Shown: in pieces, positions 29,409 through 41,642 of the stretch
Layout of the letters: every line of letters starts with the position of its first letter
How positions within the stretch are numbered: the first letter of the stretch is position 1
Origin: Ichthyophthirius multifiliis
Taxonomy: Eukaryota; Ciliophora; Oligohymenophorea; Hymenostomatida
Reading direction: 5' to 3'
Length of the DNA: 64,000 nucleotides
NCBI RefSeq assembly: GCF_000220395.1
Contig: NW_004086713.1
Coordinates: 1-64,000, forward strand
Notes under the pieces: generated by a model
What the model saw: the letters and a program-made list of their open reading frames with translations, nothing else
Databases searched by the model: none
Told to the model about the DNA's origin: nothing
Translations under genes and position numbers: made by a program

Positions 29409-30059
29409 ATGAGTATAATTTCAGGTAAGTTAAAATTAAAAGGAAAATTTAATGAAAATATGTTATAAAAAAATTAATTAATAAAATAAAAATTAGAAGT
29501 ACAATAAATAAAAGAAGCTGAGTAATTATTAAGAACTGATTAAGATAGAACCCCAAAACAAGATATACCTAATATAATTACATACGAACCTGAAGATGGA
29601 ATAGGTAAAATATTAACAAGTCAAGCAACCGTACATGGAGATAAAACAAAGTTTACTCAATAAGTTAAAAAAGGAGATTTTATTATATTAATGCATCCTT
29701 AATCATTGGCAAATGAAGAAAGAAAAATAGCATGTGTAATGAGTGATAGAAGTATATTATTAAGTTAAGCATTTTCTTCTGACATAATGAGTTATACTCA
29801 ATATTAAATTAGAAAATAAGACGAAATTTAATAAGAAGAAGAAAGTATAGAACATAAATATTTGTAGAAATTTTAAATTTTAAACAAAAAAATAAGCAAA
29901 GATAATAATAATAGTAATAAAGTAAAACTAGAATATAGATAAAAAAAAGGAATGTGGGGATATAAAAATGTAGTTGATGAAGTAAGTGATAATGTTACAA
30001 AAGAATAATTGCTTGATTTAAGAGCTAAAAAAAATAGAGATAAATTTTGTTGGATTTGA
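29409..30059 (+). CDS. Conserved-looking 216-residue protein of unknown function
   Basis: Single exon, MSIISGKLKLKGKFNEN to KKNRDKFCWI then TGA; codons are regular and the frame is unbroken. The first 60 residues are a Q/E-rich helix. A compact central part follows, DGIGKILTSQATVHGDKTKF then VKKGDFIILMHPQSL and IACVMSDRSILLSQAFSSDI, which alternates beta-like strands and looks like a small beta-barrel. The pattern G-x-L-T-x6-HG-x2-T-x-F...GD-x-I-I is distinctive. The C-terminal third is charged and carries KKGMWGYKNVVDEVSDNVT. I do not recognise the family and assign no function. Confidence 0.85.
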
Positions 30060-30788: not shown

Positions 30789-32714
30789 ATGCATTAAAGT
30801 AATTAAAAACTCAAAAAATAGTAATCTATAAAGAATATAAAAAATGTATAATTGCCAAATTTTCACCTACAAAAAACATTTTAATATAACGTGACAGAAA
30901 ACAATAAATATTAAAGAGAAGTAATTTAAAAAAAAATCATTTTTTTTTTTATTTAATTTAAAAACAAATAAAAGATAGAATTATAAAATGGTGAAACAGT
31001 TTATTTAAATGGTTTTAATTCAAAAAAATGCCTTTATAATAAAATTAATGTTAAAGACTTAAATGTATGATATAATTTAAAAAAAAAAAAAAAAAATTAT
31101 TTAATTAGGCAAAAAATATAATTTATAGACTTTTTTATTAGTATTTAACTAGAATTGGAAATGCATTTTTGATATTAATTTATATTATTTTTTATGTTTC
31201 ACCATTTACTAATAATATTGAATAATATTTAACACTTAAAAAGTATTATTTATAATTATCTTAACAAATAAAGACTTTTACCTTAATTCTTAATATTTTT
31301 TTTTTAAAAAAAAGATCATTTAATTAATCTATATTCATTTTTTTAATGCTTTTATCCTTTTTAAGTTAATGTATAAATTAGTTGTATTTTGATTTTAAAA
31401 TGTTGTAACATTAGTAATAAATAAATAATGAGCCAGCAACTATATTAAACAGATTTGATGATTAAAAATAATATGAAGAACAACTAAAATAAAATAAAGA
31501 AATATCTGTATATAAATGTATAAAATCAAAAGAAATATAAGTAATAAAAACAAACAAAAAACTAAAAATAAAATATATATAAAAAATAATAGATTGGTGA
31601 TATTTTATTTGTTAAAAAAAACGAAATAGTATAAGCTGATATTATAATACTAGAAGTAAGTGATTCTATATGTTCTTTAGATATTTAAAATACTGAAGAA
31701 ATTCCAATTCAAAAATTAAAATATCCACCAGCATTAACTTATAGTATTTTTATATTTTATTTTATTTTAAATTATTTTGTTTTGTTTGTTTTTTTTTATA
31801 AGTTTCTAAATCTTCAAAGATGAAAGGACATCATTTTGATTATAAAAAAATTTTAAACGGAAAGTTTAATTATTATAGTCCAGAAATTCGATAAAAAATA
31901 GGCTTTGAAGGATTTATAAAACTTTCAAAAGATCCTTAAGGAACGGTAATAAATGAATAAAATATAGCAAATAGAGGATCTTTATTTTAATATGCGGATT
32001 GGTGTTTAGGTTTAGCAGTTTATTGTGGGTCAGATTGCTATTATTATAATTAATCGGACTTTTTTTTTTAAAAAAAAAAGACTTTTTTAAAAAAAAGGCG
32101 AAAAGTTATTCGGAATGTTTATTATTTGTATTATTTTTATTGTTATAATTAGTATTATAGATTGGTATACAAACCCTTGTTATACATGTTTAATGAAAAA
32201 TAAAGAAGAAGAAATTAATATTATTTATGTAATTTTTTCATATGTAAATGATTATATGCTATTTTTTCCGCAAATTTTATATTTCATATACGATTCTATA
32301 ACTTTTTCGAATTCAATTTTATAAAATTACTAATATAATAAAAATAAATTGGTTAATGAAAATATGGATGAAAATAGTAAAGATAATTAGAATTTTTTTA
32401 TAAATTCATAAAAAGAAATAGCTGAGTTATATCTCACAACACATTGTTTTATTGATAAAACATGCATACTTGAAAAAAATAAATAATTTGAAATTTGCAA
32501 AATGTATTTATAAGGATCATCTTATTAAATAAATAAAAATAATATTAATAATAAAAAAGATAATTGTAATAAAGATAATGATAATAATGATATAAATAGT
32601 AATAATGAAAATAATAATAATGATGAAAATAATAAAAATAATAATAATAATGATATTGATAATTAAAATGAAAAATTTAATAATAAAAAAATTTAAAATA
32701 ATAATATTAATAAT

Positions 32715-32748
<34 letters not shown>

Positions 32749-35700
32749 TTGATATATAATAACGTTTATTCTAATTTAAAAAATCAAATTCAATTAATAA
32801 TATAATTTATTAAAATTAAACTAATTTAATAAACGATGCTATTGGTGATGAATTATATTAATATAAGTTTTTTTTGCCAAATTCATAGACCATAAAGAAA
32901 AAGAAGGATATAGAATATCAAATAGTTCAAAATAAAAATTTGAATAATTAAACTAGTATTATTACCAATATTACTACAAATAATTCTTCTATGAATATTC
33001 TTTTTTAAAAGAATTAGATTACATTAAGAAATAATTTTATAAAAAAAAAAAGTATATCCAATTGTTCTTTATAAAATCAATCTTAAAAAATTTAAAATAT
33101 AAATAATCTATATAATCATAAATATTATTTATCTTTAATTTCTCCTCAAATTAAAGATACTGCATCTCTTGCTTTTATTGATAATTTGGAAATAATCAAT
33201 TAATTTTAAAAAGAAATTTAAGAAAATTCGGTTAAAGATGAAATTAAAAGTAATGTAAATATATGTAATTTATTAAAAGGAAACATAAATGATAATAATC
33301 AAACCTAATAAAATTATTTGGATAACAATAATTCCGAAAAAAAAGTATTGAAATTTTAGATTCTGGCTTAGAATTTATTTCTCAATATGCATAATAATAT
33401 CGAAAGTTCTCAATATTAATAACAAGAAAATTAACTCAAATAATCAAAATAAGATATATGCTATAAAATCGAAATAAATGATTAAGTTTCTCCTTTGAGA
33501 AAACTCACAAAAAAGTAATCTTTAATGAACCTTTATATTCCTCAAAATAGCTTAAATAAATTAAAAGAAGAAATTATTTCGGAAAGTTATCTTCTTTAAA
33601 AATAGGCGATTATTACTTTGGCTATTTGTCATATTTCCAGGACTGTATTAAATACTTTAAATGGAAAAATAGTTGTTGATTATTAGAAATACTTATGATT
33701 ACCTTTTATTGATTTTGCGAAATAATTTGACTGTAATTTTAAATGTGTAACTAAAGGCAAAGGATAATCACAATATTAATATGTTATCATGCTTAAATAG
33801 TAAATTATTATTCTTGAAATTTGTATTCCTCCTCTTTATAATTTAAGAGAAAATCGATTACATATTTTGGTTAAAGAAGATGATTAATATTTTATTTATA
33901 TAAGGTAAATAAATATAATTAAATTATTTTTTTGTTATATGTATGAATATATTTAATGTTAAAATATAGAGAAGAATTAGATAATATGCCTTCTTATATT
34001 AAATGTAATTAAGGTTTTAAGGAAAGACTAAAAGAACAACTTTAATATATGATTGAAAAAGGGCTTATTGGAATTATTTTTTGTAGAAAAAATATAAGTT
34101 GGTAAACTGCGGATATGATGATTGAGAAATATGGAATAATTTCTAAAAATTTAAATTCGGAAGATAGAAAAATTAATACTTATTTACTTTTTAAAGAATA
34201 GTTAAATGAAATGAATTTTATAAGTTTATTTTCTGTGAAATAAATATTAAATATGAATGCCTAAAGTTTAATTTAAAACCTAAAAAATGCATAAATAAAT
34301 ACTTTCTTAATTACGGGAGATTCCAGTTTAAGAGCTTTAGCAGTTGGATATGAAACCGGATTATTTAGTGGAAACGATATTATTAGTTTTGAATCTTATA
34401 AATAAGAAGAATTGAAATATTAAATGAATGTTAATTTGAAAAAAATTAGAGAAAAAATATTATATAAAAAATAAGAAATTACTAAAAAAGTTAATTAAAG
34501 TAAGATTTTTAAATTATATACATTAAGTTTAATTTTTATTATTATTTTTTCTTTTAAGATTAAAAATTTAATAGTATTAATAATATTATCCCTAATATTG
34601 AAAAATCATAAAATATAATCGATGAAGATAGAACTCAAATTCTTATTGATGGAAAATCTTTTTAATAAATAATAGAAAATTAATATTTAAAAAATCATTT
34701 TTGTTTTATTGTTTATTTTACTGACTAATGTATTGCCTACTCTTTTAGTTAAAATCAAAAAGCCTTATTTATTTAACTTATTAAGAATATAAATAAATGT
34801 ATATTTTTTATATTTTAAAAAATAAATAAAAATAAAATAAAAAAGAATAGATATATACTTTAGCTATTGGAAAAGGTATAAACAATACAAAAATAATGTA
34901 AAATGCTGATTTTTCAATTTAATATGAAACTATATCTGAATAAAATTAAAATAATGTTTTAAATTTATTTAGTTGTATTAAAGTTTCAAAATTGAGTACA
35001 ATTAGTTATTTATTATATTCTTTTAGTAGAAATGCATGTGAGATAGTGGAAGATAGTTTTAATTTTATATTTTACAGACATTTATTTTTGCTATTTTTAG
35101 TATTTTTATGGAATTTCGGGAATTGTAGTTTCGGTGATATTATTTTTGATTTTTATGATATTGTATAAGTGAATATTTCCTTAGTAATAATATTATTATC
35201 TTTTTTGGTAAGAAAAAAATATATAGTATAAAAACACGAAACTCATATTCTTACTTATGTGAAACAATTTAAATAGAAAAAAATTTTTTTTATTGATATT
35301 TTATAGAATTTTTTTTTGCTGATTTTACCTTAAACATTAGTCGATGTTTTTATTTTATTTTATTTGCTTTTTTATTCAATTAATTAAACTGTTTTACATG
35401 ACGGTATTATTTTTGAGAAATAACAAATTGTTTTTATAATAAAAAACCTTTTCCTTTTTTTAAATCATTATAAAATTATTCTTTATTAAAATTAATCAAA
35501 TAAAACCTTGATTTTAAATATAATTTTTCCTACCCTTTTTTTAATAAGAAATTCATTTGGAAAATTCTATGATATGGAATTTTCGATGTTTTATTCTCTA
35601 AATATGAGCCTTATTGTACTTGTCATTTTATTAAATTTCTCAATTTCTAATTTCCTTATGAGGTTAATTAGTCCATTAATTAGTTTTGGTATGATGAAAA

Positions 35701-38700
35701 ATAAAAATAGGTTTTAAGAAATATATTAATAAGTACTTTAAATTTGGTAGTAATCTTAAAACAATACACTTTAAAGTCCAGATATAAATATGAATACTAT
35801 ATTATAATAATAATAAAAAGAAATTCAAAAAAGAAAATCCTAAATATATAAATAAAAAGATTAATCATAAATATAAAAAGATTAATCTTAACTATAAAAG
35901 GAACAATCTTAAATGTAAAATTAAGTTAATTAAAATATATAACATAATGTAAATATTTAATATTCTTAATAATCTAAATAAATGGATACAGTATAATTAG
36001 ATAGCATTTATTAATAAATAGAAAAAGAAAAAATATCTAATGTTAAAAGAAAAATTAAAAAAGCTGCCCTTGCTTAAGTTTTTAAATTAATTTTTAAAGA
36101 CAATGAAGTTGATAATATTTTACAAGATCTAAACAGTGAAAATTTCAATATAAATGCTACCAAAATGCATCCTCTTTTTTTGACTTTTCCTTCGAAAGAA
36201 ACCGAAGGGAAATTCGTTCAATAGTAAATTCAAAAAAACAGAAAATTCTATATGATTTCTTCTGTTTTGATTGTTCTTTTTGGGGATATAATAATAGCAA
36301 TTTTTAATTAGTAAAAAATGAATATTTCTTACCTATTAATAGTTAGTAAATGTGGAATAGATATTTTTTTATGGATTATTTTGATATATTCTTAATATAA
36401 TCTCTTTACTTAAATTAATTATATGATTTTTTTTTTAAGATTTCTATATAGATTGGTTTTTTTGATTTTAATGGGAGAAGAAAGCATACTATAAACTATG
36501 TTTTATTCACTTTTATTTAGCTATAGTATACTTGTTTCGGCTTTTTTTTAGTTTTTTATTTAATTTGCACTAGTTTTGGCACATATAGTGTAGTTTATTA
36601 TTTAATATTTATTATAAAATACTTATTAATAAGATATTTATTTCCAATTGTATATAATACTCAATATAATTATAAATAATTTACTTTTCACTGGATTAAT
36701 TTTTAAAATGAAATATTAACATGATATTTAAAAGAGAAAAAATTTTTAACATGTAAATACTATTTTTATAGAAACAAAAAAATAAATAATGTCTTATCTA
36801 TTCTTTTACCGACCTTCATAAGGGAAATAATAGATGAAAAAGGAAAAGAATATTAAGAAGACCAAGGAAACGTGGCAATTTTGTTTTGCGATATATATGA
36901 TTTTGATTCCATTATTTAAATCGAGTAGGGAAACATTATTCGAATCTTAGATAAATTATTCAGGGCTTATGACAATACGTGTGATTTATACGGAATCTAG
37001 AAAATCGAAACTGTAGGAAAAACGTATATGGCTGCTGCTGGTTTAAAAGGAATTAAATAATCACAAGCATAACTTTAAATAAGCAAAGATATTCTCCCAG
37101 TAATCAGATGTATACTTATGGCTAACGAAATGTTAAATTAAACTAAAAAAATGACTTATGGTGAATAATAAAATAAACTCAAAATTAAAATAGGAATTCA
37201 TTATGGTGTTGTTTAGGCAGGAGTTATTGGAGGACATAAACCTTAGTTTTCATTAATTGGAGATACTGTAAATACTGCTTCAAGGGTATGTTTTAATGGC
37301 GAAGTGGATTTTATTACTATTTCAGATTAAGCAAAGGAAGCTAGTATAGAATAAGTAAAAATTTAAATGTATTATTATTTATTATTAATGGAATTTTTTT
37401 TAAATAGAAAATTTTATATATTAATTATTTTTTTTAAATTAAAATATATTATTACAAATATATATATATATATATATATATTAATATAATAGTTAAATGA
37501 TTTAAATTCAAAATAATTTTAAGATTATTCGCCTTAGTTTGGGTTTATAATTAATCTTATAGAAAAAATCATATAAGCGAAGGGAAAGGGAAATTTGAAG
37601 ACTTATTAGGTTATATTTAAATAAGTTAAAAAGAAATAAATATAGACGATAAAAAAATAAACTGAATTATTACTTACTAAATATAAAAATTAGAACTTTA
37701 TAAAAAGTAGTAATACAAATTTCATTAGTTAAGATTTTAATAGAGTCAGATCAAACAATTTTAATATAGAAAAAAGTATTTTTATAAATCAAAATAATTC
37801 TCCAATAACAAATGATATTAAATAATAATGTAAATTGATTACTTACAGTGTAGAGTAAAATAAAATAAAATAAACTCAAGATGATATTGAAAATACAAGT
37901 AATACAGAAATATAGATAGAATAATAAATATAAATAAGTATGGAATATAAAAGATAAGTATCAAAACAAGTAACTGAATAAATGGTAAATTATAAATAAA
38001 AAATATATATTATTAACTTAAAAAATAAAAAAAAGAAATATAATAATTTTTAAAATTAAATATATATATATAATAAATATATTTTAAATATTATATTATA
38101 ATAAAATTAAATTATATATCAAAATAATTTTGTATAATTATATATATATATATATTTATTTTTATAAAAATTAAAGTAAATATTTAAAAAAAATTATAAA
38201 AAAAATAAATAGTAAAATTTATAATATATTTTATATAAATATAAAAATACAAAAATAAATATAAAAAAATATATTTTATATAAATAAATATATTTTATAA
38301 TTATGTAAATTTTAATAGAAATTTGATTATTCTGCAATTAGATAATTAGAAAATTAGATTGGTATTTATCCTGTATTAGAATATTAAACTTAACTAAAAG
38401 ATATTGTATTAGATTCTGAAAAATTACGACAGTATTTCTATGATAAGTCTAATGATAATATAAATATAAATATATAATAAAAAAGATATAACTTTAAAAT
38501 TAGTATTCTAGAAATACTTTAAGGTTAATATTAAGCTGATTTATAACATTATTATGAGTCTGTTTTCTAGAATAGTTTTTAGAATATAAAAATATATAAT
38601 TTAATTATTTGCTTAATTAATATTATAATACTTTTTTTATAAAAACTTATGAATAATAATTTAATTAAAGATTAAAATTAATCGTTTTATACTAGAGTTA

Positions 38701-40059
38701 CTATTGCTTTTATTTATTTAGGTATTTTTCTTTCGAATAAATATATGATTAAAAAAGGTATTTTTGTTGTGAAAATTGTTATATATTTTTCTTATATTTC
38801 ATGGATTTTATAAATTGTTTATGAAGGATATTTGTATTTTCAATATTCCAAAATTGATTTTATTATTAAAATGTAAACTTCTACTGTTATTTTTATTTAT
38901 TCGATTATTATTTAATATAAATTCATAAAGTAAAAAATAAAAATTTTATTCAATTAAAAAAATAAAGTATAAAAGAAAAAATTATAACAAGTCTAATTTT
39001 AATGGTATTTTATTTAATTTTTAAAGTCTATAATTCAAATATTAATGTAGAAGATGCCTATTTATTTTTTATAATAATTATAAGTTTAATTATTTAATAA
39101 ATTATTTGTCTTTAAGTGGATCTTTGTAGTTTTAAAAACCGAAAAATGCTTGACAAAAAAATGCATGATTAAAATTAATTATTAGAATATTTACTTCCTG
39201 GTCATATTAGAGATTAATTTCTAGAAAATCAATCTTAAGCAATAAAATTAATTGATCATTTTGATAATGTGACTATTTTATATGCTGATATAGCAGGATT
39301 TACATAATATTCCGCAAGTGTAAAACCTGAATAAGTAGTTTTATGTTAAGAGAGTTATTTACAAAATTTGATTAAAAATGTTAATAAAATAAAGTTTATA
39401 AATTATATACAATAGGAGATTGTTATGTAGTTATGGGATTAATAAATATAAAAAATAGGAATTATATATAAGAAGCTTAAAATGGTAAAAAAAAAAAAAT
39501 TAAAAATATAAAAATATAAAAAGTGATAAATTTAGGATTTAGTATGATAGAAATAATATAAGAAGTTAGATAAATAATTAATTATGATGAACTTGATATG
39601 AGAATAGGAATTCATACAGTAATTAAAAAAAATAAAAATATATAAATAATAAATATATAAATATATAAATATATAAATATATAAATATATAAATATATAA
39701 TTATTATATATTTTTATATCTATATTTACTCTTTTAAATAATAGGGTAATATTATTGGAGGTGTCGTTGGAACAGGAGTTGTTAGATATGATATATATGG
39801 ACCTGATGTCGTTATTGCTAATAAAATGGAAAGTAATGGAAAATAAAGTAGAATAATGATTAGTGAAAATACATATTAATTAATTTATGAAAGTTGTCAA
39901 GATATATATATTTTTGAAGATGAGGGGGAGGTTTATATTTCTAGTCAGAAAAGAAAAATTAAAACTTATTTTATCAGACAATAATTTTAGTATGAAAATT
40001 AGTAAGAACATAATTCTAATATAAGTAATAAATATAGTATAAATAAATTATCTATTTGA
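30789..40059 (+). CDS. Guanylyl cyclase with N-terminal P4-ATPase-like (flippase) domain
   Basis: Starts MHQSNQKLKKQQSIKNIKN and spans about 9.3 kb with many small introns. The P4-ATPase half has an N-terminal GETVYLNGFNSKKCLYNKI, membrane segments, an actuator domain (GDILFVKKNEIVQADIIIL, about 31600), the phosphorylation site region FIDKTCILEKNKQFEICKMY (about 32445), an Asn-rich insert (32520-32760), FLITGDSSLRALAVGYETG (about 34305), TLAIGKGINNTKIMQNADFS (about 34860) and more membrane segments (35040-35700). Two cyclase domains follow, each after a membrane cluster. Domain one (about 36780-37350) has AILFCDIYDFDS, KIETVGKTYMAAAGL and QFSLIGDTVNTASRV. Domain two (about 39190-39960) has LYADIAGFTQYSA, LYTIGDCYVVMGL and YDIYGPDVVIANKMES. 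Glu and Ser at the purine-reading positions of domain one predict GTP as substrate. Domain one looks C2-like and domain two C1-like, the inverted order known from ciliate and apicomplexan guanylyl cyclases. Membrane protein, probably of cilia or plasma membrane. Confidence 0.93.
32520..32762 (+). repeat. Asn-rich low-complexity insert in the P4-ATPase region
   Basis: AAT triplets encode long Asn/Asp runs just after the DKTC phosphorylation-site region of the cyclase, where P4-ATPases have the nucleotide-binding domain. Length is probably variable between strains. Confidence 0.85.
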
Positions 40060-40604: not shown

Positions 40605-41560
40605 TCAATTTTTTTTTAATTTTTTAACAATATCTCCTTTTTATATGAAATCTAAAATATCCATATTTCTTTTTTTTTCTTCTTTAAAATTAGTAAACTC
40701 TGGATTAATTCTTCTTTTTTTAGTTTTAGTTTAGACTTCATCTTTATGAGCTTTTTAATCATAAGTTCCCATAGATCTAGTAGAATTTTAAGCGACCTAT
40801 AATTTTTTAGCTACGAGTTTTTTATCTTATTTAAGTTTTTGTTTTCCCTTAGTTAATTCACGCAGATTATGTCCTTTGGCTTCCATTTTATTTTTAATTT
40901 CATTTAATTTTTACCTTTCTTATAGAATTTTTTTTCTAATTTTTTCTAACGAAAGGATCTTCATAAGGATCTTCATTTTTTTTACTTCGATAATTGGATT
41001 ATTTTTTTCTTCTATTTTCTTTATTGAATTAGCTCCCCATCTAGGTACATAATCTTATGTTATCTTATCATAAACCATTCGCCCTCTTTTTCGTTTAATA
41101 ATTCCTTTTTCTTCAGCGAATTTTTCCCATCTAGTTTATTTTTTTTCTTTTGGAATAGGTTTAAATCTGGGAAATAAAGTCGATTTTTTTGGCAATTTTA
41201 AATCATAAAGTCCTTTGGAAAAATCCTGTATTTGTAAATCATCGTCTTTATTGTCACGATCTGCATTCATTTTGGTTTTTTATTGTAGAAGATTTGTGAA
41301 CAATTATTGGATGTTTTGTGTTGCTCGGGCTTTTATTTATTCAGAAGTGGGATTTATGTTATTTATGTCACTTATGGTTAATATTCCAGTATCAAATGTT
41401 ATGTTTGATTGAACATTTTGGTTTTCTTCGGTTTATTTTGACTATTTTTTTTTGGTTTAATGTTAATTTTAGTTTTTGATTGTTTGTTTCCTTTTTTTTT
41501 ATTTGGTTTTTTTTTTTTTTTTCTTTTTTTTTTTTTTTTACTTTAATTTTAGATTTTTTT
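40605..41560 (-). CDS. RRS1: RRS1, ribosome biogenesis regulatory protein
   Basis: The core matches Rrs1 throughout: NITFDTGILTISDIN and ATQNIQQLFTNLL near the N-terminus; then LPKKSTLFPRFKPIPKEKKQ, TRWEKFAEEKGIIKRKRGRM, VYDKITQDYVPRWGANS, and a C-terminal VAKKLQVAQNSTRSMG. Rrs1 acts with Rpf2 to bring 5S RNP into the pre-60S particle in the nucleolus. The raw frame is open across the gene, but between 40935 and 40990 the family-conserved NEDPYEDPFVRKN lies one frame away, bounded by two A8 runs. Two compensating length errors there would explain it. The N-terminus is a Lys-rich stretch encoded by poly-A, so the start is uncertain and I place it near 41560; an internal ATG is at 41270. Confidence 0.88.
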
Positions 41561-41642
41561 AAATTTAACTTAAATATTATTTTATATTTTATTTTTTATA
41601 AAGAGAGAAAAAATAAATAAATATATAAACTTAATATAAAAA

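What the first reader, a model, noticed from the sequence alone, without database searches (positions are those of the whole stretch)
30789..35720. P4-ATPase half of the cyclase has lost several catalytic motifs
The order of flippase motifs is intact, but key ones are altered. The DKTGTLT site reads DKTCILE, the actuator DGET stretch is replaced by DIQNTEEIP, TGDK reads TGDS, and GDGANDV reads GKGINNT, which removes two Mg-binding Asp residues. The phosphorylatable Asp itself remains. That suggests a transporter fold kept for sensing, trafficking or complex formation rather than lipid pumping. The fusion is known in ciliates and apicomplexans; the degree of decay in this lineage is what deserves a look.
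Basis: partly seen in the sequence, partly recalled or inferred. Interest (0 to 1): 0.75.

Follow-up and report, generated by a model that had tools for sequence, protein, structure and literature searches.

The report
Retired lipid pump fused to cyclase
In a fish-parasite ciliate, one of about eighteen genes that join a lipid-pump half to a cGMP-making half has lost the pump's working residues while the cyclase half looks complete, an extreme case of a loss found in nearly all the ciliate relatives compared.

Summary
In detail: DIQNTEEIP, DKTCILE, TGDS and GKGINNT lie at 31680, 32454, 34313 and 34869, and the deposited Ichthyophthirius multifiliis protein of this locus (IMG5_076200) carries the last three. 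The decay is not peculiar to this copy. I count 18 such cyclase loci in the genome; of the 17 whose P4 half can be read, none has the DGET glutamate and 4 have DKTGT. Of 87 aligned rows only two, of unnamed source, keep that glutamate. By contrast 6 of 8 free-standing P4-ATPase loci show all four motifs. Special here is a second, Ichthyophthirius-only step: both GDGxND aspartates and Gly-Thr of DKTGT are gone, though paralog C77 and five Tetrahymena proteins keep them, without faster evolution of the P4 half; the cyclase core residues viewed are kept. Best reading: a pseudo-flippase kept as scaffold or regulator of a guanylate cyclase. Caveat: the assembly breaks the frame at about five places, more than in any paralog; it is largely 454 data, so sequencing error and recent gene death cannot be told apart. 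A degenerate P4 half is already published for Plasmodium GCbeta.

The parts
30789..40024 (+). whole fused P4-ATPase-like/guanylate cyclase gene as modelled here, about 14 exons; last exon boundary and the stretch 37817-38357 uncertain
   Evidence: codon-usage Viterbi model and frame-tolerant spliced alignment to Tetrahymena P0002 and P0004
30789..30920 (+). first exon, ATG at 30789
   Evidence: intron 30921-30974 in the P0004 alignment
31593..31743 (+). actuator-domain exon with DIQNTEEIP (31680-31706) in place of DGET
31803..33904 (+). exon with end of actuator domain, TM3-4 (PQIL 32268-32279), DKTCILE 32454-32474, Asn-rich insert and N domain; frame breaks near 32060-32101 and a pair near 33681-33690 and 33703 that brackets an apparent TGA at 33696
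33970..34499 (+). P-domain exon with TGDS 34313-34324
34846..37354 (+). exon with GKGINNT 34869-34889, TM5-10 (to about 35700), linker, first cyclase membrane block and first cyclase domain; frame break near 36765-36783
36851..37339 (+). first cyclase domain, PF00211 match E 2.1e-30
38992..40024 (+). second cyclase domain in three pieces (ADIAGFT 39284-39304, DVVIANKMES 39805-39834); frame break near 39338

Best explanation
The locus is a fused P4-ATPase/guanylate cyclase of Ichthyophthirius multifiliis whose P4 half is a pseudo-flippase. Shown by sequence: the P4 half lacks the residue that drives dephosphorylation (DGET Glu), both acidic residues of the Mg site (GDGxND), and the usual KGA Lys, GLR Arg and PISL, while the two cyclase domains keep their metal, base and transition-state residues; the P4 half is under the same constraint as that of its sisters. 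Inferred: it still folds as a 10-helix P4 module that places the cyclase in the right membrane, probably with a CDC50 partner, and may pass lipid or partner binding to the cyclase by shape alone, without an ATP-driven cycle. Loss went in two steps: DGET Glu and KGA early in the ciliates sampled, the P-domain core later and separately in C323 and C443.
For: Motifs present as described. DGET Glu absent in 0-of-17 fashion in this genome and kept in 2 of 87 rows, against 6 of 8 free-standing P4 loci with all four motifs. C77 and Tetrahymena P0001-P0005 keep DKTGT and GDGLND; C77 and C443 are sisters to the exclusion of C323 (SH-aLRT 97; 97/97 and 99/97). P4-half branch lengths 0.40/0.39/0.37 for C323/C77/C443; P4-half dN/dS 0.31, 0.33, 0.32 for the three pairs, third-position share of copy-specific changes 43% in each. 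Cyclase core residues viewed are intact in 17 of 18 loci, the window included. Fold search of a model of the deposited piece ranks P4-ATPases first. In ATP8A2 changing the DGET Glu blocks dephosphorylation (PMC4937031, passages). Degenerate PfGCbeta and the dependence of P. yoelii GCbeta on CDC50 for stability are precedents (PMC6592433 and PMC9426505, passages).
Against: No expression, activity or partner data. About five frame breaks in this gene, more than the 0-3 of the other 17 loci, leave a pseudogene possible. P-domain pieces alone show a small excess for C323 (0.40 against 0.31 and 0.37), and on them the trio is unresolved. For the better-kept PfGCalpha the P-site Asp seems essential (no viable D756N parasites in three attempts; PMC7858053 section 10), and CDC50B is not needed for trafficking of GCalpha (PMC9426505 passages), so trafficking need not be the P4 half's role everywhere. 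The structural model lacks the actuator domain and part of the N domain, and its alignment holds flippase-like relatives.
Confidence: 0.65

Rival explanations
1. The copy is a young pseudogene: the whole gene, cyclase included, has recently stopped making a protein, and motif loss is part of that.
For: About five frame breaks, the most of the 18 loci; one (39338) lies in a highly conserved stretch of the second cyclase domain in a short T run.
Against: Breaks lie mostly in A/T runs and the published assembly is mainly 454 reads (PMC3341644 passages); 7 of 17 other loci, among them C77, hold 1-3 such breaks; branch lengths, dN/dS and codon-position bias are those of the sisters. A death too recent to leave marks would escape these tests.
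Confidence: 0.2
2. The P4 half is still an active flippase with unusual motifs.
For: P-site Asp, Lys, Thr and the TGD Asp are kept; P4-like fold in the model.
Against: DGET Glu, both GDGxND Asp, KGA Lys, GLR Arg and PISL are all changed.
Confidence: 0.03
3. The altered motifs are artefacts of assembly or of the gene model.
For: The assembly does hold apparent indels in this gene.
Against: The motif changes are substitutions inside continuous alignable frames, and sister C443 changed the same two sites in other ways (EKSTL, GQSLSD); the deposited protein reads the same, though from the same genome project.
Confidence: 0.02
4. Constraint on the P4 half is only what the cyclase needs from its membrane anchor: any 10-helix membrane block would do, and the cytoplasmic domains have no role of their own.
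For: Membrane parts are among the less conserved stretches yet helices persist.
Against: Cytoplasmic actuator and P-domain stretches are better conserved than the membrane parts (for C323 against P0002: actuator 59%, P pieces 44-50%, TM5-10 33%).
Confidence: 0.1

Closest known systems
Plasmodium GCbeta
   Same: [quoted passage not shown] cyclase domain makes cGMP without the ATPase domain in P. yoelii; needs CDC50A for stability (PMC6592433 and PMC9426505, passages)
   Different: apicomplexan, two paralogs per genome against 18 loci here; not aligned here, statement rests on the papers
Toxoplasma TgATPaseP-GC and Plasmodium GCalpha
   Same: same domain order, cyclase core split between GC1 and GC2 (PMC6592433 passages)
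   Different: DGET (LNGET in GCalpha) and DKTGT kept; GDGxND kept in TgATPaseP-GC, degenerate in GCalpha; P-site Asp of GCalpha apparently essential (PMC7858053 section 10)
Tetrahymena thermophila / malaccensis / utriculariae cyclases P0001-P0005
   Same: nearest relatives outside the genome (44% identity in the P0002 alignment; tree); DGET Glu, KGA and PISL also lost
   Different: all five keep DKTGT and GDGLND
Paralogs C77 and C443 of the same genome
   Same: same clade, same fusion, similar rates
   Different: C77 keeps DKTGT and GDGLND; C443 reads EKSTL and GQSLSD
Paramecium/Tetrahymena guanylyl cyclases of Linder et al. 1999
   Same: founding description of the ciliate fusion; whole Paramecium enzyme expressed in insect cells was a functional cyclase (as told in PMC5746546, passages)
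   Different: paper not held, so its own statement on motifs was not read

Membership tests
P4-ATPase, active flippase | P4 fold / homology | tested here: met
   [not shown]
P4-ATPase, active flippase | DKTGT phosphorylation motif | tested here: not met
   reads DKTCI; Asp, Lys, Thr kept
P4-ATPase, active flippase | DGET dephosphorylation motif | tested here: not met
   no DGET; alignment certain to about one residue
P4-ATPase, active flippase | GDGxND Mg site | tested here: not met
   reads GKGINN
P4-ATPase, active flippase | KGA and PISL motifs | tested here: not met
   aligned with REE and PQIL
P4-ATPase, active flippase | CDC50 partner and lipid-stimulated ATPase | not testable with these tools
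   nine contigs of the genome carry CDC50 matches; binding unknown
Alveolate P4-ATPase/guanylate cyclase fusion | P4-like half followed by two class III cyclase domains in one gene | tested here: met
   spliced alignment to P0002 over residues 2-2913 of 2926
Alveolate P4-ATPase/guanylate cyclase fusion | one continuous reading frame after splicing | tested here: inconclusive
   about five frame breaks in a largely 454-based assembly
Class III guanylate cyclase, active | metal Asp, base and transition-state residues | tested here: met
   ADIAGFT, IGDCY, IETVGK, NTASR present; roles as described for TgATPaseP-GC in PMC6592433 passages and recalled
Pseudogene | loss of selective constraint | tested here: not met
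   rates, dN/dS and codon-position bias equal to the sisters; a very recent loss would not show

The most novel reading that the evidence does not exclude
The P4 half of most ciliate guanylate cyclases is a natural phosphorylation-without-dephosphorylation module: the P-domain core (DKTGT, TGD, Lys, GDxxND) is kept under selection while the DGET Glu is gone; seven Paramecium proteins in the set carry Gln exactly at that Glu, the kind of change that blocks dephosphorylation in ATP8A2. It would act as a one-way phosphate- or Mg-gated switch on the cyclase, and copies such as the window's have gone on to lose the switch and run uncoupled.
Probability: 0.18. Interest if true: 0.75.

Novelty: new member of a known kind. 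Interest (0 to 1): 0.45.

Why it matters
Whether the P4 half of these signalling proteins pumps lipid, senses it or only carries the cyclase is open in apicomplexans. Ciliates offer natural experiments: cyclase domains with complete core residues tied to P4 halves at every stage of motif loss, and close sisters (C77 against C323 and C443) that differ at the catalytic core. The 35 phospholipid flippases counted for Ichthyophthirius (PMC3341644 passages) may include many non-pumping fusion proteins; which genes were counted I did not check.

Tried and rejected
Considered and rejected: wrong genetic code or genome-wide artefact (free-standing P4 control); a true nonsense codon at 33696 (with an eased frameshift penalty all four queries prefer two nearby compensating frame changes, and C77 does so at the strict penalty; at the strict penalty the other three keep the stop); a link to radial spoke proteins (PMC12399478 passages, tell of guanylate kinase and phosphodiesterase). 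Coupling of P-site Asp loss with GDxxND loss could not be shown: on starred branches there are 5 independent pairs, at most 3 of which differ in the first GD Asp, all in the same direction, sign test p 0.25. Raw frameshift counts overstate breaks in diverged stretches; only those with conserved flanks were counted. At its best query locus C557 also showed one in-frame TGA, in a poorly conserved stretch. dN/dS is Nei-Gojobori from my own script with dS near 1, a comparison between sisters rather than an absolute value. Queries were seven fixed homologues. The tree leaves out 14 of 87 rows (11 near-duplicates, P0009 which repeats C576, the truncated P0038 and the fragment C687); C796 was left out of the change counts; deep joins are unsure, as the tool warned. 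In the homologue set 16 of 69 rows have a gap at the DGET Glu column, some perhaps from gene models. Homologue lists were capped (120 of 143 shown; 69 used). Apicomplexan cyclases were not aligned; statements on them rest on papers. Paper searches listed no paper whose listing reports DGET loss in ciliate cyclases; I read passages only of nine papers and one full section; subscription papers and Linder 1999 were not readable.

Full report
What the window is. The window lies on contig C323 of a 45 Mb, 937-contig assembly. GC is about 15% on average over its 2-kb steps and TAA/TAG must be read as Gln. Homologue searches returned deposited Ichthyophthirius multifiliis proteins: IMG5_133420 on a contig of 67,968 bases, the length of C576 here, and IMG5_076200, which matches the window at 1459 of 1459 aligned codons. 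So the organism is Ichthyophthirius.

Gene model. They differ where the assembly breaks the frame: there the Viterbi model invents very short introns of 25 and 28 bases or drops conserved stretches. The deposited model IMG5_076200 covers only 32115-37128: it begins within the P4 half, skips part of the N domain, and runs out of frame at the first cyclase domain, so that it has no Pfam match and hides the fusion.

The motifs. All four altered strings exist. In an alignment with 86 other rows the window keeps Asp-Lys-Thr of DKTGT, the Asp of TGD and the Lys of the QK motif, and has lost Gly-Thr of DKTGT, both Asp of GDGxND, the DGET Glu, the KGA Lys, the GLR Arg and PISL. The last four losses are shared with C77 and the Tetrahymena relatives. 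TGDK to TGDS is not informative, since the nearest relatives also lack the Lys.

Is it special? I group the 49 matches into 18 cyclase loci (17 fetched and the window; C796 is cut by a contig end, C687 is a fragment). Of the 17 whose P4 half can be read at these places (all but C796), none has the DGET Glu, 4 have DKTGT (C554, C662, C576, C77), 10 keep the P-site Asp and 7 have lost it (C520, C689, C557, C827, C443, C689b, C687). Among the 69 homologues used, mostly Tetrahymena and Paramecium, only P0064 and P0065, without a named source, keep the Glu; 16 of the 69 have a gap there. Loss of the Glu is therefore general in the ciliates sampled and probably old. On a cyclase-domain tree of 73 rows the P-site Asp needs at least 8 changes.

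The second step. C323 (the window), C77 and C443 form one clade beside Tetrahymena P0001/P0002 and P0003/P0004, and C77 and C443 are sisters (SH-aLRT 97; 97/97 on the P4 half and 99/97 on the cyclase domains; unresolved on P-domain pieces alone). C77 and all five Tetrahymena proteins have DKTGT and GDGLND; C323 has DKTCI and GKGINN, C443 EKSTL and GQSLSD. Thus the P-domain core was lost in two copies, by different changes.

Relaxed or not? P4-half branch lengths are 0.40 (C323), 0.39 (C77) and 0.37 (C443); cyclase domains 0.12, 0.16 and 0.14; P-domain pieces alone 0.40, 0.31 and 0.37, a small excess for C323. dN/dS of the P4 half is 0.31, 0.33 and 0.32 for the three pairs and 0.13-0.15 for the two cyclase domains; the third-position share of copy-specific changes in the P4 half is 43% in all three. 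So the catalytic core went without a general loosening of the P4 half. The cyclase core residues viewed are present in 17 of 18 loci, the window included; the fragment C687 lacks the stretches.

A family-wide pattern. In 16 representatives that lack the Glu, the near-invariant columns of the P domain are mainly the P-type phosphorylation core (DKTGT, TGD, Lys, GDxxND), and in the actuator domain 13 columns, the Gly before the lost Glu among them, stay near-invariant, whereas the N domain has only one, a Cys. The representatives were chosen on five of these columns, so only the others (Gly and Thr of DKTGT, Gly and Asp of TGD, Lys, Gly and Asn of GDxxND) count as evidence. Seven Paramecium proteins (P0011, P0012, P0013, P0019, P0021, P0024, P0025), two from Tetrahymena (P0039, P0057) and C827 have Gln at the Glu column; in ATP8A2 Glu to Gln at this site blocks dephosphorylation (PMC4937031 passages). 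This is the basis of the novel case. Against it: the N-domain KGA Lys is changed in most of these rows, so phosphorylation from ATP is not assured.

Frame breaks. Against two Tetrahymena proteins the window gene changes frame near 32060-32101, 36765-36783 and 39338, and an apparent in-frame TGA at 33696 is bracketed by two compensating changes near 33681-33690 and 33703. The 17 other loci together hold 10 breaks with conserved flanks (C443 3, C77 2, five others one each), so the window has the most. The breaks lie mostly in A/T runs, and the published assembly was made mainly from 454 reads at about 19-fold depth (PMC3341644 passages). I cannot decide between sequencing error and a gene that died recently; constraint argues for a working gene at least until recently. 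Copies with fewer breaks exist; I make no statement on how to mend this one.

Mechanism. The best reading is a pseudo-flippase that serves as scaffold or regulator of a guanylate cyclase. Precedent: PfGCbeta has a degenerate ATPase domain (PMC6592433 passages) and P. yoelii GCbeta depends on its CDC50 for stability (PMC9426505 passages); in Toxoplasma loss of CDC50.1 mislocalises the cyclase and stops its response to phosphatidic acid (PMC9600588 passages). Nine contigs of this genome carry CDC50 matches. Against: PfGCalpha seems to need its P-site Asp (PMC7858053 section 10). Shown: motif loss, constraint, cyclase residues. Inferred: fold in this copy, cyclase activity, CDC50 binding, and the absence of pumping.

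Noticed in passing
window 32115-37128: Deposited gene model IMG5_076200 (P0121) covers only the middle of the fused gene and shows no Pfam domain, so the fusion is hidden in the annotation.
   Followed up: yes
P0019, P0024, P0025, P0026, P0029: A Paramecium clade has DKTCT: the same Gly to Cys change as in the window, with GDEAND kept.
   Followed up: no
L025 (C687): A fragmentary locus: a P4-like start with FNKTRT and only the end of a cyclase domain, possibly a deleted copy.
   Followed up: no
window 40608-41642, minus strand: Neighbouring gene for ribosome biogenesis protein RRS1 (PF04939, E 2.4e-34).
   Followed up: no
window 29409-30056, plus strand: A 216-residue ORF upstream of the cyclase gene with no Pfam match.
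   Followed up: no
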